Shown: positions 677 to 11,245 of the stretch, piece after piece | Layout of the letters: every line of letters begins with the position of its first letter | How positions within the stretch are numbered: position 1 is the first letter of the stretch | Assembly: GCA_947461185.1 (NCBI GenBank) | Contig: CANHJY010000038.1 | Location: 1 to 11,639 of the forward strand | Direction: 5' to 3' | Length of the DNA: 11,639 bases | Source of the DNA: Flavobacteriales bacterium | GTDB lineage: Bacteria > Bacteroidota > Bacteroidia > Flavobacteriales_D > Crocinitomicaceae | The notes under the pieces: model-generated | Database searches by the model: none | Seen by the model: only the letters and a program-made list of their open reading frames with translations | What the model was told of the DNA's origin: nothing | Made by a program: the position numbers and the translations under genes

Positions 677-750
677 GGACCTATAGCTCAGCCGGTTAGA
701 GCATCTGACTCATAATCAGAGGGTCCCTGGTTCGAGCCCAGGTGGGTCCA
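677..750 (+). tRNA. tRNA with CAT anticodon, elongator type (tRNA-Met, or tRNA-Ile2)
   Basis: A full cloverleaf can be drawn. The acceptor stem is GGACCTA paired with TGGGTCC (one T-G pair), followed by discriminator A at 750. The D-arm is GCTC/GAGC, the anticodon stem TCTGA/TCAGA has loop CTCATAA (anticodon CAT at 711-713), and the T-arm is CCTGG/CCAGG with loop TTCGAGC. CCA is not encoded, as is common in Bacteroidota. The first base pair is a normal G-C, unlike the mismatched C1-A72 of initiator tRNA, so this is an elongator Met tRNA or the Ile2 species whose anticodon C is changed to lysidine; sequence alone does not settle which. Its 3' half is a typical target for tyrosine-integrase-mediated island insertion. 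Confidence 0.95.
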
Positions 751-762
751 CGCAGTACAGAT

Positions 763-1105: not shown

Positions 1106-1390
1106 ATGATTTCAGGAAGAATAGATTTTGGAAAGTATATATTAGAACTGAGAACAGCCAAAGGCTTCTCTCAAAAAAAAGTAGCAGAGAAATTGGGGAT
1201 TGATATTAGCATGCTTAGTAAAATTGAGCATGGCGAGAGGCAAGTGCAGGGACATATGCTTAAGCCATTGGCTAAACTTTTTGAAGTGGATTACAAAAAC
1301 TTACAGATACAGTTATTGCAACAAAAGATTGAAGAGGAATATGGAAGCGAGCCATATTTTTTCGAAGCAATTTGTCAGATTAAATCTTGA
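1106..1390 (+). CDS. Cro/C1-type HTH regulator, R-M controller (C protein)-like
   Basis: A 94-aa protein that is little more than an HTH_3/XRE domain. Residues about 10-64 carry the five-helix fold, with SQKKVAEKLGI (22-32) as first HTH helix and DISMLSKIEHGER (33-45) as turn and recognition helix. The charged C-terminal tail (QQKIEEEYG) may aid dimer formation. Controller proteins of R-M systems have about this size and fold, bind symmetric boxes at their own promoter and delay the restriction function until methylation is established. Here the gene is first in the cassette, follows a promoter overlapped by a palindrome, and its stop lies 2 nt before the helicase ATG. The ATG at 1106 is used because it precedes the whole domain and follows the promoter at the right distance; no Shine-Dalgarno is visible. 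Regulation of the two large genes is inferred from position. Confidence 0.85.
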   Translation: MISGRIDFGKYILELRTAKGFSQKKVAEKLGIDISMLSKIEHGERQVQGHMLKPLAKLFEVDYKNLQIQLLQQKIEEEYGSEPYFFEAICQIKS

Positions 1391-1392
1391 TT

Positions 1393-4300
1393 ATGTCAAC
1401 AAACAGCAAGTTTTTTACAAACAGAGAGGATAACTCACTACTTAAAAGGTTCATTGGTGCCTTTGAAAATATGGATGTGCACCAATTTGATGCACTGGTT
1501 GGCTATTTCCGATCTTCTGGCTATTTCAAACTAAGACCATACCTACAAAAAGTTCCAAAAATTAGAATTTTGGTGGGTATCAATGTAGATGAAATCATCT
1601 CAAAATATCATGCTCAAGGACTTCTATTCTCAAAAGACGCCGAAAAGACTAGATCAGAATTTTTAGAGGACTTAAGAAAAGATATTCAAGACTCTCCATA
1701 CGAGAAAAATGTAGAGGATGGTATCATCCAGTTTATTGAAGATGTACTTGATCAAAAACTAGAAATAAGAGCCCATCCTACAAAAAAACTTCATGCCAAG
1801 ATCTACATTTTTAAGCCGGAGAAATGGAATGAATATAATGTAGGAGAGGTAATTACAGGCTCTTCAAATTTAACAGAAGCCGGATTAGGGGTAAGTGATG
1901 CATCAAAAAACTACGAATTCAATGTACTCCTAAGAGACTACAATGACGTTAAATTTGCCAGCGAAGAATTTGAGGAATTATGGGCAGAATCAATCTCAAT
2001 ACTTCCTGTAGATATTGAGGGGCTTAAAGCCAAAACATATCTGCGCTCTGATATCACAGCTCGTCAGATTTATTATAAGTTTCTTATCGAATACTTCGGA
2101 AAAGCGATTGACTTTGATCCTAATTCGGTGACTGATTTACCACAAGGTTTTAAGCGATTAAACTACCAAGTTGACGCAGTTGAACAAGGATATCGACTGA
2201 TGATGAAACATAATGGAGCTTTCCTGAGTGATGTGGTTGGTACTGGAAAAACAGTCGTGGCTACACTCATAGCCAAGAAATTCTTTTTCCAAAATGGATT
2301 TCCCGAACACCTATCAAGAACATTAATTGTAATGCCCCCGGCTCTCGAGGAAAACTGGACTGAGACTACGGCAAAATTTGGCCTTTCGAATGTAGAATTT
2401 ATCACTAGTGGATCACTTCATAAGATTGGTAATAAAATGGAAAAATATGACCTAATTATTGTCGATGAAGCGCATAAATTCAGAAACAATACTTCAGAGG
2501 CATATGCTGAATTACAAAAAATTTGTAAGGCGCCAGCTGCAAGAATTCTTGAGGATGAGACCAGAGCTCAGAAAAAGGTTTTATTACTTTCTGCAACTCC
2601 ACTAAATAACCGCCCTGAAGATATTCGAAATCAAGTAATGCTGTTTCAAGATGGCAAGCGAACAACTCTTGATGTACCTAATTTGACTAGCTACTTTAAT
2701 GACAAAATAAAAATCTGGAAGGAAATATCAAAGGAAGAAATTAGAGTTGCTAAGCCTAAAATCGAAAGCTTATATGCGGATATAAGGGATAAAATTATTG
2801 CTCCTTTGACTGTAAGGAGAACCAGAACAGATTTGAAAGAACATCCGATGTATAAAAAGGATTTGGATGAACAAGGCATCAAATTCCCAGAAGTTCAGGC
2901 ACCCCACAAAGTTTTATATGAATTAGATTTTGAATTAGAAGAATTATATGATGAGACTTTGAAATTACTCACTGATAAAAAGAATGGATTCACTTTCAAT
3001 AGATACCGTGCACTTGGGTTTTTAAAGCCTGATTTGAAAAAGAAGTACAAAGCAGCAGACCTAGCATCCGATCAGTTAGCGAATATCATGCGAATTCTTT
3101 TGGCAAAAAGAATTGATTCCAGCTTTTATGCATTCACTAATACATTGAAAAGATTCATGGATGCAACTCATGCCATGATTAAAATGCGTGATAATGATAA
3201 GATAATCATCGCTCCTAACTTAAAAGGGAAGGTCAGTGAATATATCATGAACGATCAGGAAGATGAATTATATGCCATCATTGCTGATTTGGAAAAAACC
3301 GATCCTACTATAACAGTTTGCAAGGTTTCCGATTTTGAGGATGGCTTTTTTGAAGGGCTTGAGCGTGATTTTAATTTTCTTACAAGCCTCTACAGTCGTT
3401 GGTCGGAAATAAAGACTGATCCAAAACTTGACAAATTCAAAGGGTATTTAAAAAAGATTCTAAAAGAACCATACAATGCCGAAGGAAAGCTAGTAGTCTT
3501 TTCAGAGTCAAAGGAAACTACATCATACCTTGTTAAAAAATTAGATGAAGTGGGATTTACAGGTATCATTGATGTTGATGCCGGCAATAGAAATCAACGA
3601 ATGCCAATTGTTCGTGCAAATTTTGATGCCAATGCAGACGGCTCGACTAAAAAAGATGATTTCAATGTAATAATAACGACTGAAGTCCTTGCGGAAGGCG
3701 TAAACCTGCATAGGGCCAATGTTATTGTAAATTATGATACACCTTGGAACAGTACAAGACTTATGCAGCGAATCGGCCGGATCAACCGTATTGGGTCAGT
3801 AGCCGACGAAGTTCACATTTTCAATTTTTATCCAACTTCTAAAGTAGAAGATCAAATTGAGTTGAAAAAGAAAGCGATTTTCAAACTACAAGCTTTTCAT
3901 TCCGCTCTTGGTGAAGATTCACAAATATATTCTGATGATGAAGAGGTAGATACTTTCGGACTTTTTGAAACGCCTCCAGCTGAAGAGCGAGATGAAACAC
4001 TTGCATACCTTATGGAGTTACGGAAATTCAAAGAGGATTTTCCGGCCGAGTACCGAGAGATTAAAAAAATGCCATTAAGAATGCGAGTTGCCGTTGAAAA
4101 TACTCAATTAAGCTCATCATCATTCTGTTACTTAAAAAATCAAACAGGTAGTGCCTTTCTTCAGGTCAATGAGAATGAAGTAATTGAAGCTTCATTTATT
4201 AAAATGGCAGGAACGCTTAAATCAAATATCGAGAAGCAATCAATTATTCCGCTTCCAAAATATCACCATGATTTAGTGTCGATGGCCATAAAAGATTTTG

Positions 4301-4680
4301 AGAGAAAAATGGCTGATGCACCGGTTGAACAAATTGCTATCGATACGAATAAAAGCCCTCAGGAAAAACAAGCCATGTCATTGCTAACAACCTTTGTCAA
4401 TGCCCAATTCTTAGATCAGGAAGACATTGATTTGATTCGACTTGGACAACAGTGCATAGCTGAGCAAACCTTTACACCCATGCAAAGGGAGTTGGCTCAG
4501 TTAGCGCGTAATGTAAAAAAGACACCAGTTTCTCCAGAAACAATTGCAGAATCAATATTGAGCATTTTGAAGAAATATCCGGTGCATGCTGTAGCATCCA
4601 ATAAAACTCAATCGCAAAAGAAAATTAAGACCGCAAGTGAACTAACGCCAAAGGTGATATTAACCCAGACATACTGCTAA
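1393..4680 (+). CDS. PLD-family nuclease fused to SNF2/DEAH-type helicase
   Basis: About 1095 aa. Residues 1-210 form a phospholipase-D-like nuclease domain with one active-site motif: H134-A-K136, then G156-S-S-N159 (HxK...GSxN, as in BfiI/NgoFVII-type nucleases), so two chains would be needed for a full active site. The helicase follows: Q-motif-like region near 255, Walker A GTGKT (K286), DEAH box (358-361), SAT (400-402), and in the second RecA lobe TTEVLAEGVNLH and QRIGRINRIG (792-801). The last 290 residues are unrecognised. The role inferred is translocation along foreign DNA coupled to cleavage, as the restriction half of a modification-dependent defence system. The ATG at 1393 is preferred, 2 nt after the regulator stop; an in-frame TTG at 1387 would add two residues. 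The stop is 1 nt before the methyltransferase ATG, so translation is probably coupled. A non-R-M DNA repair role is less likely given the partners. Confidence 0.88.
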   Translation: MSTNSKFFTNREDNSLLKRFIGAFENMDVHQFDALVGYFRSSGYFKLRPYLQKVPKIRILVGINVDEIISKYHAQGLLFSKDAEKTRSEFLEDLRKDIQDSPYEKNVEDGIIQFIEDVLDQKLEIRAHPTKKLHAKIYIFKPEKWNEYNVGEVITGSSNLTEAGLGVSDASKNYEFNVLLRDYNDVKFASEEFEELWAESISILPVDIEGLKAKTYLRSDITARQIYYKFLIEYFGKAIDFDPNSVTDLPQGFKRLNYQVDAVEQGYRLMMKHNGAFLSDVVGTGKTVVATLIAKKFFFQNGFPEHLSRTLIVMPPALEENWTETTAKFGLSNVEFITSGSLHKIGNKMEKYDLIIVDEAHKFRNNTSEAYAELQKICKAPAARILEDETRAQKKVLLLSATPLNNRPEDIRNQVMLFQDGKRTTLDVPNLTSYFNDKIKIWKEISKEEIRVAKPKIESLYADIRDKIIAPLTVRRTRTDLKEHPMYKKDLDEQGIKFPEVQAPHKVLYELDFELEELYDETLKLLTDKKNGFTFNRYRALGFLKPDLKKKYKAADLASDQLANIMRILLAKRIDSSFYAFTNTLKRFMDATHAMIKMRDNDKIIIAPNLKGKVSEYIMNDQEDELYAIIADLEKTDPTITVCKVSDFEDGFFEGLERDFNFLTSLYSRWSEIKTDPKLDKFKGYLKKILKEPYNAEGKLVVFSESKETTSYLVKKLDEVGFTGIIDVDAGNRNQRMPIVRANFDANADGSTKKDDFNVIITTEVLAEGVNLHRANVIVNYDTPWNSTRLMQRIGRINRIGSVADEVHIFNFYPTSKVEDQIELKKKAIFKLQAFHSALGEDSQIYSDDEEVDTFGLFETPPAEERDETLAYLMELRKFKEDFPAEYREIKKMPLRMRVAVENTQLSSSSFCYLKNQTGSAFLQVNENEVIEASFIKMAGTLKSNIEKQSIIPLPKYHHDLVSMAIKDFERKMADAPVEQIAIDTNKSPQEKQAMSLLTTFVNAQFLDQEDIDLIRLGQQCIAEQTFTPMQRELAQLARNVKKTPVSPETIAESILSILKKYPVHAVASNKTQSQKKIKTASELTPKVILTQTYC

Positions 4681-4681
4681 T

Positions 4682-7600
4682 ATGAATAAGGAACAATTAC
4701 AAAATTTGCTCAATCAGAAATACGATGCTGCAAATTGGAACAAAATCTATGGAAGCATATTTCCGAATGTGATGTTATTCGCATCACCAAAAGAAATTGC
4801 AGTTACTGAGAATTGGGTAAAATCATTCAAGCAACGCGGTTTGGTTCGTTTGCAAGGCAATCAGGATGTGGCTATTTTTGAGGTAGTATTACAGGATGGA
4901 ATAAGTGTACAGTCGAAGCGAGTAGGCCTCAGAAACTTAGTAGCAAAGCTGATTGATGAGTATCAAAATCATGGTGTGCTAGCTGTTTTTGACAATGGCA
5001 GTACTGAATACAGATTCACATTCGCAGCCAAGGAGACCAAAGTTACCAGAGAGGGAATAGAGAAAACAGAAACAGATTCCAAGCGTTATACCTACATATT
5101 AGGTGAAACAGAAACATGCAAAACAGCCGCTGAACAATTTATTAAACTTTCAGAAAAAGGTTCAACAATCTCACTATCAGATTTGCAGGAAGCATTCTCT
5201 GTTGAAAAGCTATCCAAACAATTTTTCAATGAATATAAGGAACAGTATACTTATTTTATTTCTTATCTCGAATCACAACCCAAAATTCTTAAATCAGTTT
5301 TTGCCGATGACGAAAAGAGAATGCGGGACTTCGTTAAATTATTATTAGGCCGTTTAGTTTTTTTACAATTCGTTCAGAAAAAGAGGTGGCTTGGTGTACC
5401 TTCAAAAAATACCGACTGGTCATCCGGTGATGTGAAATTTTTAGTGAACACATATAAGGCCTTCTCAAAAAAAGAAAAATACTATAGCGAGTTCTTAGAG
5501 GAGTTGTTTTTTGAATGCCTCAACAGCCCAAACAGAAAAAACGAACTTTTTTCGATTACAGGCACCAAAGTACCATTTTTGAATGGTGGTCTATTTGAGA
5601 ATGACAACCCGAAAACCAAATCCATCAATTTTCCGACAAGTTATTTTGACGGTCTATTTGATTTTTTCGGCCGTTATAACTTTACAATAGATGAAAATGA
5701 TCCAACTGAAAAAGAAGTAGGTATTGATCCCGAAATGTTGGGAAGTATATTTGAAAATCTACTCGAAGACAACAAGGATAAAGGTGCATTTTATACCCCA
5801 AAGGAAATTGTGCACTACATGTGTCAGGAGAGTTTGATCGAGTATTTATGTACCAAAATAAATACTCAAAATGATGAGAAAGTAACTACATCAATAAGGA
5901 ATTTGATTACTAAGAGGAAAATAGATGGAGATGGTACAGAATTAATAAAACCTATTGCCACTGCTCTGAGAGAAGTAAAAATATGTGATCCAGCAATTGG
6001 ATCTGGCGCCTTTCCCATGGGAATGCTGATGGAAATATTTCATTGTGTGTTTGAATTGTATAATGCCGATTCAAAAATTGTAAGCAAAGAATGGAATTTG
6101 AATGGTTGGCAAGCCAATGTCGTAAAGAGCAACATTATTCAAAATAGCATTTATGGGGTTGACATCGAAAAGGGTGCAGTCGATATCGCCCGTCTCCGTT
6201 TTTGGCTAAGCCTTGTGGTTGATGAAGAAGAGCCAAAAGCCCTTCCAAATCTTGATTATAAGATAGTAGTAGGAAATAGCCTTGTGAGTAAACTTGGTGA
6301 TGACATCATTGATATAGATTGGGAAGTAAAGGCAAATACAGAAGCTGCCAAAAAGCTACAACAGGAAATACAAAATAATCTCAATAAATTATTAAAAACA
6401 CAAAAATTATTTTTCGACTTTAATGGTAAAAAGGAAAACTTAAAAGAAGAAATCAGAAATCTTAAAATTGATGTCCTTATCAGCCAATTGCAGCTCGATA
6501 AATACAAGTATGGAAATAATAGCGCACAAATTGGAAGTTTATTTGAGATGACGGCCAAAGAAAGAGCAACTAGTGAGGATCGTGAAAATAAATTGTTGGG
6601 ATTTGAAAAAACTATTCGCGAGCTACAAAAGTTAAAAAGTAAAACAGATCAACCGTTAAATTTTTTTGATTGGAAATTAGATTTTCCTGAAGTGTTAAAT
6701 GAATTAATAAACTCAAATGCGGGGTTTGATATAGTGATTGCAAATCCTCCATATGTTGGTGTAAAAGGAAATCAAAAAATATTTGACGCCATCAAACAAA
6801 GTAATTTGTCCAAATTTCTAAAAGGTAGATCAGAACTCTTTTACTTTTTTATTCATCAAGCAATTATTTTGGGCAAGAAAGATTGTGTAAATACTTTTAT
6901 AACAACCAATTACTATATTACAGCATCAGATGCCAATGTTTTAAGAAAATCCTTAAAGGAAGAAACTACAATTGTAAAACTTCTGAATTTTAATGAAATG
7001 AAGTTATTCCCTTCTGCTCAAGGGCAACACAATATGATCACTATTTTCAAAAAAGGTTTATCTAAAGATTCAATCGTAAAATCATTTATCACTAAATACA
7101 AAGGATTTCCCAAAGACAATGTCCTTCCATTTATTTTTGATTTTTCAGATTCTAATACTAATTATTTTACAACAACTCATTCTGAAGTATTTGAAGGAGC
7201 TAATCATTATATGAGAATTGAAGGGAAATCTGGTAGCTCAGAATCACTCAAAGGTGTTTACAAAGCAATTAATTGCAAACAAACACTTGGTGATATTTGC
7301 TTTGTTCGGCAAGGATTAAGAACAGGCATTGATAAAATAACAGACAGCCACATTGCAAAATTCAACTATACTGGTAAAAAAGGTGAAGGTGTTTTTATTT
7401 TGACAGAAACAGAACTTAAAGAAAAAGGTATAAGCAAAAAAGACAAATTAATTAGACCTCTTTTTAAAAATAGTGATGTATCCAAATATGTCACTGGTGA
7501 AATAAATAATAAATATTTAATTTATACGGACAATAGTATTACACTAAGTAAATTAAAGAATAACCATAAGGCAATTTATGATCATTTGAAAAAATACAAG

Positions 7601-8140
7601 GATTTGATTATTCAAATTAGAAATCAAAATAATGAAGATACTAGCACCTGGTTTTTGCTTGATAGGCCAAGAGAAGAATGGATATTTGAAGGTGATAAAA
7701 TTGTGGCACCACAACGTTCAAAGACTAATACATTTGGATTTAATTCAATATCTTGGTATTCAAGTGCTGACGTTTATTACATTAAAACAAAGATGAAGGA
7801 ATATGATTTAAAATATATCTTGTCATTACTAAATTCAAGATTGTTTTTAATTTGGTTACTTTATAAAGGAAAAAGAAAAGGAGAAATGTTAGAGCTTTAT
7901 CAACAACCACTTTCAGAAATTCCAATAAAGGAAGTTTCAAAAGAAATACAATCAAAGTTATCATCTTTTGCAGCAAAAATTATACTACTAAAATCACAAG
8001 ACAGAGACACAACAGATTTAGAAAAGCAAATTGACAACATTGTTTACAAAATTTACGAACTCACTTATGATGAAGTAAAAGAAATAGATTCTGAATTTAA
8101 ATTAAGCAAAAAAGAATATGATAAAATTGAATTGGAGTAA
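4682..8140 (+). CDS. Eco57I-like N6-adenine DNA methyltransferase with target-recognition region
   Basis: 1152 aa. The catalytic core shows GAFYTP (368-373), SAM-binding motif I DPAIGSGAF (436-444), an acidic YGVDIEKGAVDIARLRFW motif (D494), and catalytic motif IV NPPY (688-691), diagnostic of gamma-type N6-adenine methylation. A lysine- and glutamate-rich, probably coiled-coil insert (about 546-660) separates motifs I and IV. The C-terminal part resembles a TaqI_C-like DNA recognition region (VRQGLRTG, RPREEWIFEG, LLNSRLF) and ends with a type IIG-like YKIYELTYDEVKEID tail. The N-terminal 340 residues contain KRVGLRNL and KRYTYILGETE blocks I associate with this family, but no nuclease motif I can identify. 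It probably marks host DNA and supplies sequence specificity for the upstream helicase-nuclease. The 3' part from about 6660 is far more AT-rich than the 5' part, suggesting exchange of the recognition half. Confidence 0.9.
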   Translation: MNKEQLQNLLNQKYDAANWNKIYGSIFPNVMLFASPKEIAVTENWVKSFKQRGLVRLQGNQDVAIFEVVLQDGISVQSKRVGLRNLVAKLIDEYQNHGVLAVFDNGSTEYRFTFAAKETKVTREGIEKTETDSKRYTYILGETETCKTAAEQFIKLSEKGSTISLSDLQEAFSVEKLSKQFFNEYKEQYTYFISYLESQPKILKSVFADDEKRMRDFVKLLLGRLVFLQFVQKKRWLGVPSKNTDWSSGDVKFLVNTYKAFSKKEKYYSEFLEELFFECLNSPNRKNELFSITGTKVPFLNGGLFENDNPKTKSINFPTSYFDGLFDFFGRYNFTIDENDPTEKEVGIDPEMLGSIFENLLEDNKDKGAFYTPKEIVHYMCQESLIEYLCTKINTQNDEKVTTSIRNLITKRKIDGDGTELIKPIATALREVKICDPAIGSGAFPMGMLMEIFHCVFELYNADSKIVSKEWNLNGWQANVVKSNIIQNSIYGVDIEKGAVDIARLRFWLSLVVDEEEPKALPNLDYKIVVGNSLVSKLGDDIIDIDWEVKANTEAAKKLQQEIQNNLNKLLKTQKLFFDFNGKKENLKEEIRNLKIDVLISQLQLDKYKYGNNSAQIGSLFEMTAKERATSEDRENKLLGFEKTIRELQKLKSKTDQPLNFFDWKLDFPEVLNELINSNAGFDIVIANPPYVGVKGNQKIFDAIKQSNLSKFLKGRSELFYFFIHQAIILGKKDCVNTFITTNYYITASDANVLRKSLKEETTIVKLLNFNEMKLFPSAQGQHNMITIFKKGLSKDSIVKSFITKYKGFPKDNVLPFIFDFSDSNTNYFTTTHSEVFEGANHYMRIEGKSGSSESLKGVYKAINCKQTLGDICFVRQGLRTGIDKITDSHIAKFNYTGKKGEGVFILTETELKEKGISKKDKLIRPLFKNSDVSKYVTGEINNKYLIYTDNSITLSKLKNNHKAIYDHLKKYKDLIIQIRNQNNEDTSTWFLLDRPREEWIFEGDKIVAPQRSKTNTFGFNSISWYSSADVYYIKTKMKEYDLKYILSLLNSRLFLIWLLYKGKRKGEMLELYQQPLSEIPIKEVSKEIQSKLSSFAAKIILLKSQDRDTTDLEKQIDNIVYKIYELTYDEVKEIDSEFKLSKKEYDKIELE

Positions 8141-8160: not shown

Positions 8161-8478
8161 ATGGATTCGAAATTATTTGAAACAAGACAAATTTTGTTGT
8201 TTATTGTTAATTCTCCAGATTATTGTGAGTTTGAAGTGCAACAACAACTCCAGGAGCTTGTTTTTTTGGGTACTATTAATATACATGGAAATACAATACA
8301 AACAAGCGAATTTTATACAAAAGAAATTACGACCACGAACAACAGCCCAATATTAGAGATAGTAAGAGATGAGGTTAAAATGAGGTGTCGAATATTAAAT
8401 ATAAGGATGCTTGATTTCTTTCTTATAGATTTAACCGACGCGCCTATGTACAAAGCAATGTGGTATGGCGATCAATAA
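8161..8478 (+). CDS. Small protein of unknown function
   Basis: 105 aa, 20 nt after the methyltransferase stop and in the same direction, so probably in the same transcript. I recognise no family. The sequence (MDSKLFETRQILLFIV..., ending MYKAMWYGDQ) has a mixed alpha/beta character with hydrophobic stretches but no clear membrane segment, signal peptide or metal-binding cluster. Codon use is strongly AT-rich, like the 3' end of the methyltransferase and the next gene. A GTG at 8148 in another frame closes after ten codons, so the ATG at 8161 is used; no Shine-Dalgarno is visible. It may be a passenger or an accessory factor of the cassette. Confidence 0.55.
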   Translation: MDSKLFETRQILLFIVNSPDYCEFEVQQQLQELVFLGTINIHGNTIQTSEFYTKEITTTNNSPILEIVRDEVKMRCRILNIRMLDFFLIDLTDAPMYKAMWYGDQ

Positions 8479-9299
8479 TAGATATAAAAACAAATAAGAC
8501 TATAATCCAAATGTTTTTAGAAGACATAGAAAAATATACATCCCAATATCAGAAAGGAATGAAAAAAATCACCTTTCGTAGCAGCTATCTTAAGTTGCTT
8601 AAAGAGCCAATCGAAATTAAGATCGATAAAGTTTACGGCAACTATGAATTAGTTTTTAATAATAATGGTCTTTTACTTCACAGTGTCCACAATGAACAAA
8701 ACAATAACTTCAAAGTAATTTATGGTTATAACAATAAGGGGTTTCTAATTACAGCCATGAAATTGTTTTGTGAAAAGAATGTACTGATTTCACGGAGTGA
8801 ATTTAAGTATAATAACAGAGGAAAAATTGAGACAGAAACAGTCTATAAGTTTTGTTTAGGTACCAATGATTACAAAATAATAGAGTGTCACACACATACA
8901 TATGAAGAAAACAAGAGAACGATTACAGTAAAAAATTATGAAGATGAAAAAGATACTTTTTTTTGTGTTTATTTAACATACAATAATATCGGTAATGTTA
9001 TAGAAGAAAAAGCCTTAGATATTGGGGGATTGGTTTACTGGAACAAAAAAGAGTATGACAACGACAATAATTTACTTAAGGAGATTTCATTAGATGAAAA
9101 TGGTGTCCAAGATTGCCTTTACGAGTTTTTTCCACTTAAAAACAATCTAGAGTCTGGTTATGTTTGCAAATCAGCAGAAACCAACTACAGGAGAGACTAT
9201 TCTTTTACATTTAATGAAAAAAATCATTGGATAAATAAAGTTATAATGAATGATGGTGGCCCTCGATATTTTTATGATAGAGAAATAGAATACTATTGA
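8460..9299 (+). CDS. Unrecognised protein with YD-repeat-like beta-hairpin repeats
   Basis: Up to 279 aa. The first ATG overlaps the previous gene by 19 nt; an in-frame ATG at 8511 (262 aa, beginning MFLEDIEKYT) starts 32 nt after that gene's stop and is an equally good choice, since neither has a Shine-Dalgarno. From about residue 60 on, the chain is built of degenerate repeats: an aromatic-rich strand, then N-N/D-x-G or N-x-K-G turns, for example VFNNNGLLLHS, YGYNNKGFLIT, FKYNNRGKIETE, LTYNNIGNVIEE, EYDNDNNLLKE and FTFNEKNHW. This spacing is like RHS/YD repeats, but much shorter than RHS toxins and with no toxin tip. There is no signal peptide or membrane segment, so a cytoplasmic protein is likely. 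Function is unknown; its position ends the AT-rich block after the methyltransferase. Confidence 0.6.
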   Translation: MVWRSIIDIKTNKTIIQMFLEDIEKYTSQYQKGMKKITFRSSYLKLLKEPIEIKIDKVYGNYELVFNNNGLLLHSVHNEQNNNFKVIYGYNNKGFLITAMKLFCEKNVLISRSEFKYNNRGKIETETVYKFCLGTNDYKIIECHTHTYEENKRTITVKNYEDEKDTFFCVYLTYNNIGNVIEEKALDIGGLVYWNKKEYDNDNNLLKEISLDENGVQDCLYEFFPLKNNLESGYVCKSAETNYRRDYSFTFNEKNHWINKVIMNDGGPRYFYDREIEYY

Positions 9300-9422: not shown

Positions 9423-10040
9423 ATGCCTGGAATAATTTACATTCTCTCAAATCCTGCAATGCCAGGAATAATTAAAATAGGTAAAACAACTCAAGAGGAC
9501 GTGAAAACAAGAATGCAGCAATTATATCAGACGGGGGTGCCATTGCCATTTGAGTGCGTTTACGCTGCTTCTGTTAACAACATAGATGATGTGGAAAAGG
9601 CTTTGCACGTTGCTTTTAATCCAAACAGATTAAATCCTAAACGAGAGTTCTTTGAAATTGAGGCGATACAGGCAATCGCAATCATCAAATTGTTGCAAAT
9701 TGAAAATGTTAGTCAGCAAGTTGAACAAGAAGCTGAAGTCATTGATCAAGTAGAATTAGAGGCCGGGCAAGCATACGCAAGAAAACGGCCAAATTTTAAT
9801 TTTATTGAAATGGGTATTCCAGTTGGTTCGCAAATTTATTTTAATACAGATGGAGAAGCTGCAACAGTTATCTCCGAAAAACTTGTACGATTCCGGGACA
9901 CTGAAACAAGCTTGACAAATGCTACTAGATTGGCTCTTGGTGAAGGCTATGCTTACAATGTAGCACCTGGTCCATATTGGACATTTAATGGAAGAAAACT
10001 GAGAGATATTTACAACGAAACATACCAAAGAATTGATTAA
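9423..10040 (+). CDS. GIY-YIG nuclease (MUG113/T5orf172 type) with RAMA-like C-terminal domain
   Basis: 205 aa in two parts. Residues 1-90 match the MUG113/T5orf172 branch of GIY-YIG: IIY (4-6), NPAMPGIIKIGKT (10-22) in place of YIG, R30, GVPLPFECVYA (38-48), H62 and the catalytic-glutamate motif REFF (E75). Key catalytic residues look intact, so it is probably an active metal-dependent DNA endonuclease. A Q/E-rich linker (about 92-118) leads to residues 122-205, with FNFIEMGIPVGSQIYF, a central SLTNATRLALGEGY and PYWTFNGRKLRDIYNETY. This pattern resembles RAMA, a domain predicted to read modified DNA and often joined to methylases and nucleases; that call is from memory of the pattern. It lies in its own unit after a 123-base gap. 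A modification-sensing or accessory defence nuclease is likely. Confidence 0.82.
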   Translation: MPGIIYILSNPAMPGIIKIGKTTQEDVKTRMQQLYQTGVPLPFECVYAASVNNIDDVEKALHVAFNPNRLNPKREFFEIEAIQAIAIIKLLQIENVSQQVEQEAEVIDQVELEAGQAYARKRPNFNFIEMGIPVGSQIYFNTDGEAATVISEKLVRFRDTETSLTNATRLALGEGYAYNVAPGPYWTFNGRKLRDIYNETYQRID

Positions 10041-10093: not shown

Positions 10094-11245
10094 ATGAAAC
10101 GCTACATTGAAATTGTATACGACAACAGCGGAAGCATGAATGATCGTGTTGGAGGTAAAAAGAAATACGAAATAGCTCAAGAGTTATTTGAAAAAGACAT
10201 TCTGCCTACTATTGGTTTGAAGGGTGATCACGTTGTCTTAAGATTATTAAGAACTAGCTGCGAAGATTCAATTTCAAGAACTGAAATTCTGCCAAATCAA
10301 AGGAGTTTAATGCTTAATCGCATTAAGGGGATTAGCCATGACCAGAGCACTCCTCTGTTTTTTACAGTATATGATGCAGTTGAAGCATGTAGAAATTTCC
10401 GCGCTGATGAGTATTTAATTTTTGTTCTTACGGATGGTGACGACACCTGTGGTACTAGGATTGAGGAGCTTATTGATGAAGATACCCTGAAAAAATATGT
10501 TAGATTTTACAAGGTACTTCTTGTTCAGTTAGCGGTTGATTCTCCAATCAGCCGTAACAACCTTACAGCCTTTACCAATGCGCTTGGAGGTCAGGCTATC
10601 TCCTTAGATAGTTCTGATTCAATTACTCAGATGAGGAGAAAACTTAAGCTCGCATTAAATGTTTCCGGCTTTTCTAATAAGCTACCCCTAGAGCATTGTT
10701 TTGACAGCCTACCGGGGTTCGACTTATCATGGGATGAAATTGAAAGTGCAGGAATCAGTTTTCATCAATCCATGTTACTGCATCAAAAAGGCATACTAGA
10801 GTGGATGCCTGATTTAAACATTAATGTTAATACACTTCAAATGGCGGAATTGAGGTTTTTACATTCATTAATTTTCAAAAGCGGAATTCCCGAAGATTTA
10901 ACCAAGACAATGTTGTCCCAATTAAAGAAGCCATATTACTATTCATTCGACTGCATTTATTGGGATTTTTCTGTTGCCCGATGGAGATATTTCATACAGC
11001 AGAACCCAATTGAACAACTTCCAAATAGAGATGCAAGGTTTGATGATTTTCCTGAAAAGAATAAAATGCGGGATTTTGATGAAAAGCAATGTCACTATAA
11101 AGAAAATGAAATATATCGAGTTGAACTAGCCCCAACATTAATGCCTTCATTTCGGTTAGTTAGAGAGGATTTAGCTGATTTTGAAATCAAGCCTAAAACA
11201 AAAAATTTGAAAGAAGGTGATAGGATAATTTTCAAATGGAAATAA
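10094..11245 (+). CDS. VWA-domain protein with intact MIDAS
   Basis: 383 aa. The N-terminal 200 residues are a von Willebrand factor A domain: D10-N-S12-G-S14 (DxSxS), T86 in DQSTPLFF, and D114 in VLTDGDD make a complete metal-ion-dependent adhesion site, so metal-bridged partner binding is expected. No signal peptide or transmembrane segment is seen, so it is cytoplasmic. Residues about 200-383 are unrecognised and end in KEGDRIIFKW. Cytoplasmic VWA proteins usually act as adaptors for AAA ATPases (MoxR type), Ter-type kinase/phosphatase modules or defence complexes; none of those partners is encoded in the window. The ATG at 10094 opens directly on the first beta strand. It follows the GIY-YIG gene by 53 bases in the same direction, so the two may be cotranscribed. 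GC content looks closer to the helicase gene than to the AT-rich block at 6700-9300. Confidence 0.85.
   Translation: MKRYIEIVYDNSGSMNDRVGGKKKYEIAQELFEKDILPTIGLKGDHVVLRLLRTSCEDSISRTEILPNQRSLMLNRIKGISHDQSTPLFFTVYDAVEACRNFRADEYLIFVLTDGDDTCGTRIEELIDEDTLKKYVRFYKVLLVQLAVDSPISRNNLTAFTNALGGQAISLDSSDSITQMRRKLKLALNVSGFSNKLPLEHCFDSLPGFDLSWDEIESAGISFHQSMLLHQKGILEWMPDLNINVNTLQMAELRFLHSLIFKSGIPEDLTKTMLSQLKKPYYYSFDCIYWDFSVARWRYFIQQNPIEQLPNRDARFDDFPEKNKMRDFDEKQCHYKENEIYRVELAPTLMPSFRLVREDLADFEIKPKTKNLKEGDRIIFKWK

What the first reader, a model, noticed from the sequence alone, without database searches (positions are those of the whole stretch)
1106..8140. Compact regulator / PLD-helicase / adenine methyltransferase cassette, possibly an underdescribed defence type
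Seen: an HTH regulator, a single-chain PLD nuclease plus SNF2-type helicase, and an Eco57I-like methyltransferase with gaps of 2 and 1 nt. Known relatives share only parts: DISARM has a PLD protein, a helicase and a methylase as separate genes with DUF1998 proteins; NgoAVII/CglI systems pair a PLD nuclease with a separate SNF2 protein and a C5 methylase; type ISP enzymes put helicase, nuclease and methylase in one chain. Inference: this is a distinct two-component restriction system where the methylase supplies specificity and the fused helicase-nuclease cuts.
Basis: partly seen in the sequence, partly recalled or inferred. Interest (0 to 1): 0.7.

Follow-up and report, generated by a model that had tools for sequence, protein, structure and literature searches.

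The report
Widespread two-gene ATP-dependent restriction-modification pair
This is a pair of neighbouring bacterial genes, one making a motor protein with a DNA-cutting domain and one making a DNA-marking enzyme whose recognition part is often swapped; it looks like an unnamed, common kind of defence that marks the cell's own DNA and attacks unmarked DNA.

Summary
An HTH gene, a PLD-SNF2 protein (1095 aa) and an Eco57I-type adenine methyltransferase (1152 aa) lie in tandem with gaps of 2 and 1 nt. The two large genes are a conserved unit: 22 of 24 helicase-bearing genomes of the window's phylum carry the methyltransferase beside it, as do 72 of the 73 judgeable loci among the 80 best GTDB ones, across many phyla. 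The HTH is optional. PLD, ATPase and methylase active sites are invariant or nearly so. DUF499, DUF3780, DUF1998 and BREX-size PglZ are not linked to the pair, so it is not Hma/BREX-related, DISARM or BREX; nothing I searched names it. The methylase's C-terminal recognition domain is exchanged: its identity is uncorrelated with helicase identity (rho 0.00). In five loci an inverted partial methylase copy and a serine recombinase sit downstream. A constant nuclease beside a changing methylase is easiest to explain if that domain directs both activities. The methylase N-terminal domain covaries best with the helicase, suggesting it is the dock. I read it as a split, type ISP/III-like ATP-dependent restriction system with a PLD nuclease. 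Cutting, m6A and phage defence are untested.

The parts
1106..1390 (+). XRE-type HTH, control-protein-like, 94 aa; optional partner
   Evidence: Pfam HTH_3 47.5 bits; PADLOC Control_protein 31.4 bits; same-strand relatives within 2.5 kb upstream of the helicase in 14 of 101 loci
1393..4680 (+). PLD-SNF2 protein, 1095 aa (nuclease-motor)
1393..2037 (+). PLD (HKD) domain, residues about 1-215; H134, K136, N159, E175
   Evidence: PLDc_2 32.2 bits; the four residues are invariant in 79 of 79 sequences that have the region, 2 of 81 lack it
2110..3972 (+). SWI2/SNF2 motor, residues about 240-860
4682..8140 (+). Adenine N6-methyltransferase with built-in TRD, 1152 aa
4682..5203 (+). N-terminal domain, residues 1-174, REase-like in position and strand order, degenerate motif; proposed dock for the helicase
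   Evidence: D/E59-E/D67-K69 complete in 9 of 60 paired methyltransferases, window has G59 E67 V69; best covariation with the helicase, rho 0.54
5204..6760 (+). Helical and catalytic region, residues 175-693, motif I DPAxGxG at 436-442 and NPPY at 688-691
   Evidence: checked motif residues kept in 60 of 60, apart from G for A438 in 1 and F for Y691 in 3
6779..7936 (+). Target recognition domain, residues about 700-1085; the exchanged part
   Evidence: 8-36% identity in 50-residue bins over 701-1100 against 56-98% in bins over 1-700 in four close pairs; rho 0.00 with helicase identity
677..751 (+). tRNA-Met (CAT) beside the cassette; context only
   Evidence: ARAGORN

Best explanation
A two-gene, ATP-dependent restriction-modification system. 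The methyltransferase reads a (probably asymmetric) site through its C-terminal recognition domain and methylates adenine N6 on the cell's own DNA (inferred from its family). The PLD-SNF2 protein docks on it, probably through the methyltransferase's N-terminal domain (inferred from covariation). At an unmethylated site the SNF2 motor is switched on and the PLD domain, which works as a dimer in BfiI and SauUSI, cuts, perhaps when two complexes meet, as in type III and ISP enzymes (inference). Because the same recognition domain steers marking and cutting, specificity can change by swapping or inverting that domain while the nuclease-motor stays the same (exchange and inverted copies: seen in sequence; inversion itself: inferred).
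For: Linkage in 22 of 24 genomes and 72 of 73 judgeable loci; methylase-first, 18 of 19 genomes also hold the helicase. Active sites invariant or nearly so. TRD identity independent of helicase identity over 1770 locus pairs, median 22.6% even where the SNF2 regions are 80% or more identical, n=29; Mantel rho 0.00, p 0.47. Break close after NPPY in four metagenome pairs and in L130/L143 and L141/L145. Inverted C-terminal copy and serine recombinase downstream in five loci; four of the five copies match TaqI_C, one of them at 23.6 bits, below Pfam's cut-off of 26.5, and all five recombinases match Resolvase. N-terminal domain rho 0.54 against 0.14 for the catalytic part. Neighbours scanned include defence-type genes: YhcG nuclease, Schlafen/AlbA, RhuM, KilA-N, McrBC.
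Against: No experiment. The helicase model is moderate (pTM 0.59), and the PLD domain was not aligned to solved PLD structures by VIA. The REase-like fold of methylase 1-174 was not tested alone; 9 of 60 paired methyltransferases keep a complete D/E-E/D-K set, so some may still cut. In 20 of 70 loci an SMC-like ATPase gene follows, so two genes may not always be enough. One locus (L082) and one genome (G037) have the helicase without the methyltransferase. In some close pairs the exchange is wider than the TRD: L090/L092 drop from about residue 520 and L111/L121 differ over most of the methylase. The recombinase also occurs in three loci without an inverted copy: L036 (= L134), L096, L136.
Confidence: 0.7

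Rival explanations
1. The methyltransferase is a self-contained type IIG enzyme that both cuts and marks, and the PLD-SNF2 gene is a separate accessory (for instance type IV-like) that travels with it.
For: PADLOC's best hits for the methyltransferase are REase_MTase_IIG (252 bits); an N-terminal domain sits where MmeI and DrdV carry their nuclease (VIA alignments start at model residues 144 and 132; nuclease place in those enzymes recalled); 9 of 60 keep a complete D/E-E/D-K set.
Against: Linkage is near-obligate in both directions. The motif is incomplete in 51 of 60 and in the window, while the PLD site is invariant. The same N-terminal domain covaries with the helicase.
Confidence: 0.13
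2. BREX-like exclusion without cleavage: the motor acts on phage DNA or its replication and the PLD domain is not used to cut.
Against: PLD residues H134, K136, N159, E175 are invariant in 79 of 79; BREX-size PglZ is not linked.
Confidence: 0.1
3. A reduced or divergent Type-2 BREX-related (DUF499) system that lost its ATPase and DUF3780.
For: Same domain recipe HKD-SNF2 plus N6-methylase (PMC12839542 section 30); the helicases are remotely related (21.5%, E 7e-20).
Against: DUF499 is in 3 of 24 helicase-bearing genomes and not near the pair; DUF3780 in 0 of 24. The one Type-2 BR locus found here (L059) fits other PADLOC models over its full length (PLD_Helicase 1513 bits, DUF499 1596, DUF1156_MTase 1461), against 74 bits for the window's helicase on PLD_Helicase, and its methylase was not hit by the window's methylase at E 1e-4.
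Confidence: 0.05

Closest known systems
Type-2 BREX-related (DUF499) systems; PADLOC PLD_Helicase/DUF499/DUF1156_MTase; Hma is in the same DUF499 group
   Same: N-terminal HKD nuclease fused to SWI2/SNF2 helicase, plus N6-methylase (PMC12839542 section 30)
   Different: No DUF499 or DUF3780 linked here; different methylase family; helicase only 21.5% identical to the one Type-2 BR locus fetched
Type ISP enzymes (LlaGI, LlaBIII)
   Different: Split over two proteins, with PLD instead of the Mrr-like nuclease (recalled) and an SNF2 motor
Type III R-M (Mod + Res)
   Same: Two genes: methylase with its own TRD, and a helicase-nuclease
   Different: Nuclease is PLD, not PD-(D/E)XK; methylase is Eco57I/TaqI_C type, not the type III Mod kind (recalled)
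CglI/NgoAVII
   Same: ATP-dependent restriction with a PLD nuclease and SF2 motor (PMC4267653 passages)
SauUSI (type IV)
   Same: Single-chain PLD-SF2; Foldseek rank 12 for the helicase model (7clg)
   Different: Carries its own SRA domain and cuts methylated DNA (PMC7913695 passages)
PADLOC C3a139 'HKD+Snf2'
   Same: Best PADLOC hit of the window's helicase, 134 bits over 42-856
   Different: Best fit among the proteins scanned here is a Weissella plasmid protein (403 bits) beside a site-specific DNA-methyltransferase and a DEAD/DEAH helicase, type III-like by my inference; what system C3a139 belongs to could not be read
BREX PglX/BrxX
   Different: No BREX-size PglZ beside the pair; extra N-terminal domain here

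Membership tests
Type-2 BREX-related / Hma | DUF499 ATPase in the locus | tested here: not met
   DUF499 in 20 of 296 genomes; in 3 of 24 helicase-bearing genomes: on another contig in G213 and G270, about 900 kb away in G236; none in G000, which is 65% complete. G213's pair is itself broken at contig ends
Type-2 BREX-related / Hma | DUF3780 gene (Type-2) | tested here: not met
   0 of 24 helicase-bearing genomes; the same model rang in G166 at 214 bits, 1 of 198
Type-2 BREX-related / Hma | HKD nuclease fused N-terminally to SWI2/SNF2 (Type-2) | tested here: met
DISARM | DUF1998 (MZB) protein, DrmB (association recalled) | tested here: not met
   3 of 24 helicase-bearing genomes, all on other contigs than the pair
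BREX | PglZ in the locus | tested here: not met
   PglZ domain in 21 of 24 genomes. Four have BREX-size frames (832-850 aa), none near the pair. The nearest hit, G175, about 3.5 kb from the helicase, has a 554-aa frame, the size of PorX (PorX size recalled; its PglZ domain is noted in PMC12839542)
Type IIG | active nuclease in the same chain as the methylase | tested here: inconclusive
   incomplete motif in 51 of 60 paired members and in the window; the fold of residues 1-174 was not tested alone
Type ISP | nuclease, motor, methylase and TRD in one chain | tested here: not met
   two ORFs, gap 1 nt
Type III | Res with C-terminal PD-(D/E)XK and Mod of the type III kind (definition recalled) | tested here: not met
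   Pfam shows PLDc_2 N-terminally, and Eco57I plus TaqI_C
SauUSI-like type IV | SRA domain on the PLD-SF2 chain, no methylase partner | tested here: not met
   no SRA hit at E 0.01; methylase partner conserved
ATP-dependent R-M in general | ATP-driven cutting of unmodified sites | not testable with these tools
   needs biochemistry or phage plating

The most novel reading that the evidence does not exclude
A separate, unnamed class of ATP-dependent restriction-modification: an enzyme of type IIG ancestry whose own nuclease domain decayed and became a docking module for an external PLD-SNF2 cutter. Many genes now labelled 'type IIG' would then be the methylase half of two-gene ATP-dependent systems, some of them with recombinase-driven specificity switching.
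Probability: 0.45. Interest if true: 0.68.

Novelty: new variant of a known kind. Interest (0 to 1): 0.55.

Why it matters
The helicase is common (24 of 296 sampled genomes of the phylum; at least 577 close and remote relatives in GTDB contigs), and it nearly always comes with this methylase, yet the libraries and record annotations seen here give only generic names or 'type IIG'. If the reading is right, a large set of 'type IIG' calls hides an ATP-dependent cutter next door. Natural TRD exchanges on a near-constant nuclease offer ready-made specificity variants to test, and the inverted copies predict strains that switch their restriction and methylation pattern.

Tried and rejected
DISARM, BREX, Hma/BREX-related: rejected by linkage tests. 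CglI/NgoAVII, SauUSI, type III and ISP as membership: rejected on architecture. The Foldseek and VIA lists were filled by the methylase body and the SNF2 core, so they say little about the fold of methylase 1-174, helicase 1-215 or helicase 861-1095. PDB sequence search gave only motor parts for the helicase (best 60 of 104 seen) and CamA/BseCI for the methylase. No helicase tree was built.

Mobility: 6 of 72,556 plasmid records at E 1e-40 (1 covering at least 80% of the query), 1 of 50,697 phage records at E 1e-30, 18 loci in IMG/VR, fetched but not read further: no clear vehicle. No second copy of the tRNA-Met 3' end in the window.

Exceptions followed: of three loci first scored as lacking the methylase with 1.5 kb or more of room, L087 and L089 carry its N-terminus at the contig end (read by eye); L082 stays an exception. 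G133 (methylase-first) is a 27% relative with no helicase in the 12 kb read. G037 is a 28% helicase with no methylase in the 12 kb read.

Other results of the self-search: same-strand methylase C-terminal pieces downstream in L044, L047, L127 and L145, and short DNA repeats in several loci; not pursued.

Not in print, as far as searched: (open-licence PMC only) gave no paper describing this two-gene unit; most of their listed papers were seen as listings only. REBASE, DefenseFinder and PADLOC system definitions were not available.

Full report
What is there. The window is a whole 11.6 kb contig of a 65% complete assembly. Its phylum is Bacteroidota in the GTDB sense by inference: names of protein relatives, and three contigs of the phylum sample that recur as records titled Balneolaceae, Kapaibacterium and Balneola. 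The HTH gene ends at 1390, the PLD-SNF2 gene runs 1393-4680 and the methyltransferase 4682-8140, all on the + strand. Pfam finds HTH_3; PLDc_2, SNF2-rel_dom and Helicase_C in one chain; Eco57I and TaqI_C in the other. PADLOC gives the helicase C3a139 'HKD+Snf2' at 134 bits as its best hit, a remote match, and the methyltransferase REase_MTase_IIG at 252 bits. NCBIfam hits are all far below their cut-offs.

A conserved pair. A protein search found 7,423 helicase relatives among the 7,998 candidates scored, a capped list. In a draw of 296 genomes of the phylum, 24 (the window's own included) have the helicase at E 1e-60 or better. I read all 24 loci. In 22 the methyltransferase lies directly downstream or with one or two ORFs of 90 aa or more between (window; 20 loci; G141). 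In G213 both genes lie at contig ends, as a break would give. G037, a 28% relative, has none in the 12 kb read. Methylase-first, 19 of 296 match and 18 of those genomes also hold the helicase; the odd one, G133, is a 27% relative. The methyltransferase follows on the same strand in 70, directly in 52 and after one to three ORFs of 60 aa or more in 18. Seven end within 1.5 kb of the helicase. L087 and L089 carry the methylase N-terminus at the contig end, read by eye. L082 is the one exception left, so 72 of 73. Three of the 80 are the same contigs as three of the 24. By record title the paired loci come from Bacteroidota, Balneolaceae, Verrucomicrobiota, Marinimicrobia, Alpha-, Beta- and 'Delta'-proteobacteria, Ignavibacteria, Cyanobacteria, Acidobacteriota, Cloacimonadota and Dojkabacteria; many are MAGs, where a contig can be binned to the wrong organism.

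Active sites. PLD residues H134, K136, N159 and E175 are invariant in 79 of 79 sequences that have the region. The helicase motif positions checked are kept in 81 of 81, apart from S for A360 in 7 and S for T402 in 2. The DPAxGxG and NPPY positions checked are kept in 60 of 60, apart from one G for A438 and three F for Y691. The methylase N-terminal domain has the strand order of a restriction nuclease (model; my reading) and the position of MmeI's and DrdV's nuclease. In the family consensus a D59-E67-K69 pattern can be read, but a complete D/E, E/D and K set is present in only 9 of 60, and the window has G59, E67 and V69. The pattern is my own reading. The conserved nuclease is therefore the PLD domain.

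Specificity lies in the methylase and is exchanged. Four metagenome pairs (assigned to the same contig by equal contig length) have helicases at 65-100% identity per 100-residue bin. Their methylases are at 56-98% per 50-residue bin up to residue 700, fall to 8-36% over 701-1100, and rise to 40-50% over 1101-1150. Over 1770 pairs among 60 loci, TRD identity has rho -0.00 with SNF2 identity; in the 29 pairs with 80% or more SNF2 identity the TRD median is 22.6%, range 17.5 to 94.6. After removing helicases 85% or more identical (51 left), Mantel rho with whole-helicase identity is 0.54 for methylase 1-174, 0.23 for 175-340, 0.14 for 341-693 and 0.00 for the TRD (p 0.001, 0.001, 0.015, 0.47). 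These loci share ancestry, so p values are rough. The order suggests that the N-terminal domain, not the catalytic body, touches the helicase. The break lies near residue 680-700 in L130/L143, L141/L145 and L112/L121, but in L090/L092 (Bacteroides sp. An322, Phocaeicola plebeius) identity falls from about residue 520, and L111/L121 differ over most of the methylase with helicases at 90-100% per bin. So the exchanged piece always includes the TRD in these pairs and is sometimes larger.

Inverted recognition-domain copies. Searching each methylase against the rest of its own locus gave inverted C-terminal fragments downstream in L037, L040, L128, L135 (the same contig as L035), L142, L146 and L151. 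Six of these, all but L151, are among 68 distinct loci with a methylase of at least 600 aa and 1 kb or more downstream; L151 was outside that count. Five (L037, L040, L135, L142, L146) also have a serine recombinase next to the fragment. Inverted repeats of 22-314 nt were found in the six loci searched, which include L151 but not L128. Four of the five fragments match TaqI_C, that of L037 at 23.6 bits, below the 26.5 cut-off; L135's has no Pfam hit. Against: the same kind of recombinase occurs without an inverted copy in L036 (= L134), L096 and L136, and L142's methylase is in two frames. The window has no such copy. Inversion itself was not observed.

Argument. If the PLD-SNF2 protein had its own site, a methylase that changes its site by exchange or inversion would leave the cell unprotected. 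The pattern seen is the one known from systems where one recognition domain steers both activities, such as type I hsdS. That is the main support for the mechanism; cutting, m6A and defence remain inferred.

Accessory genes. A family of 21 proteins in 20 of the 70 loci follows the methylase, 17 of them in first place; the two members scanned are SMC/RecN-like, one just under Pfam's cut-off. YhcG/DUF1016, Schlafen-AlbA, RhuM, KilA-N and 23S-IVP genes sit between the two in others. McrBC follows in L068, with BLAST relatives in four more loci. A relative of the window's HTH lies on the same strand within 2.5 kb upstream, mostly touching, in 14 of 101 loci (three duplicates not removed; other HTH kinds not sought).

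Against what is known. The closest described recipe is the Type-2 BREX-related system (PMC12839542: outline, sections 28 and 30, passages). Its DUF499 and DUF3780 are not linked here. The one such locus fetched, L059, belongs to other PADLOC families. DUF1998 and BREX-size PglZ are not linked either. CglI/NgoAVII (PMC4267653, passages) and SauUSI (PMC7913695, passages) put specificity on the nuclease side. An HKD domain on a few type III-like helicases was noted in 2008 (PMC2292703, passages), and HKD-SF2 fusions occur in Pbe/CxC systems (PMC10853773, passages). PMC7641849 (passages) notes SWI2/SNF2 helicases fused to PD-(D/E)XK or PLD nucleases with a COG1743 methylase and DUF499. The CglI paper mentions over 95 homologues with fused PLD nuclease and ATPase genes; whether some are of the present family I cannot tell. 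PMC12707154 (passages) says that PglX was once listed as type IIG, a precedent for the relabelling proposed here. Also seen in passages only: PMC3710099, PMC8565338, PMC10273834, PMC5903667.

Verdict. A real, widespread, unnamed (within what I could search) two-gene variant of ATP-dependent restriction-modification, with strong comparative evidence for methylase-borne, exchangeable specificity and none yet for activity.

Noticed in passing
L037, L040, L135, L142, L146 (also L128, L151 without that recombinase): Inverted recognition-domain copy downstream of the methylase, with a serine recombinase in five loci: probable specificity switch.
   Followed up: yes
window 9423-10040: T5orf172-type ORF matching PADLOC candidate PDC-S57 at 251 bits, so another defence candidate lies near the pair.
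   Followed up: no
window 10094-11245: ORF with a DxSGS-like start (VYDNSGSM) and no family hit; looks like a von Willebrand A protein by eye.
   Followed up: no
window 8161-8478 and 8460-9299: Two ORFs in a low-GC stretch with no Pfam, NCBIfam or PADLOC hit, just after the methylase.
   Followed up: no
window 677-751: tRNA-Met beside the cassette, a usual island site; no second copy of its 3' end in the window.
   Followed up: partly
20 of 70 paired GTDB loci, e.g. L073:14869-16824: SMC/RecN-like ATPase after the methylase; a possible optional third component.
   Followed up: partly
G000:C104 (L066:1552-4617): A second, different Eco57I-type methylase, full-length match to a PADLOC IIG model (478 bits), without a PLD-SNF2 neighbour on its 6.9 kb contig.
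   Followed up: partly
L148, L149, L152: Remote PLD-SNF2 relatives (about 25%) on two Lactobacillales plasmids and an Erysipelothrix phage sit with a methyltransferase and a second helicase; the phage record calls these type III, the plasmids add a DUF4391 gene.
   Followed up: partly
L111 and L121: Helicases 90-100% identical per bin but methylases different over most of their length: near-whole methylase exchange.
   Followed up: partly
L044, L047, L127, L145: Same-strand pieces of the methylase C-terminus downstream of the intact gene, perhaps leftovers of earlier exchanges.
   Followed up: no
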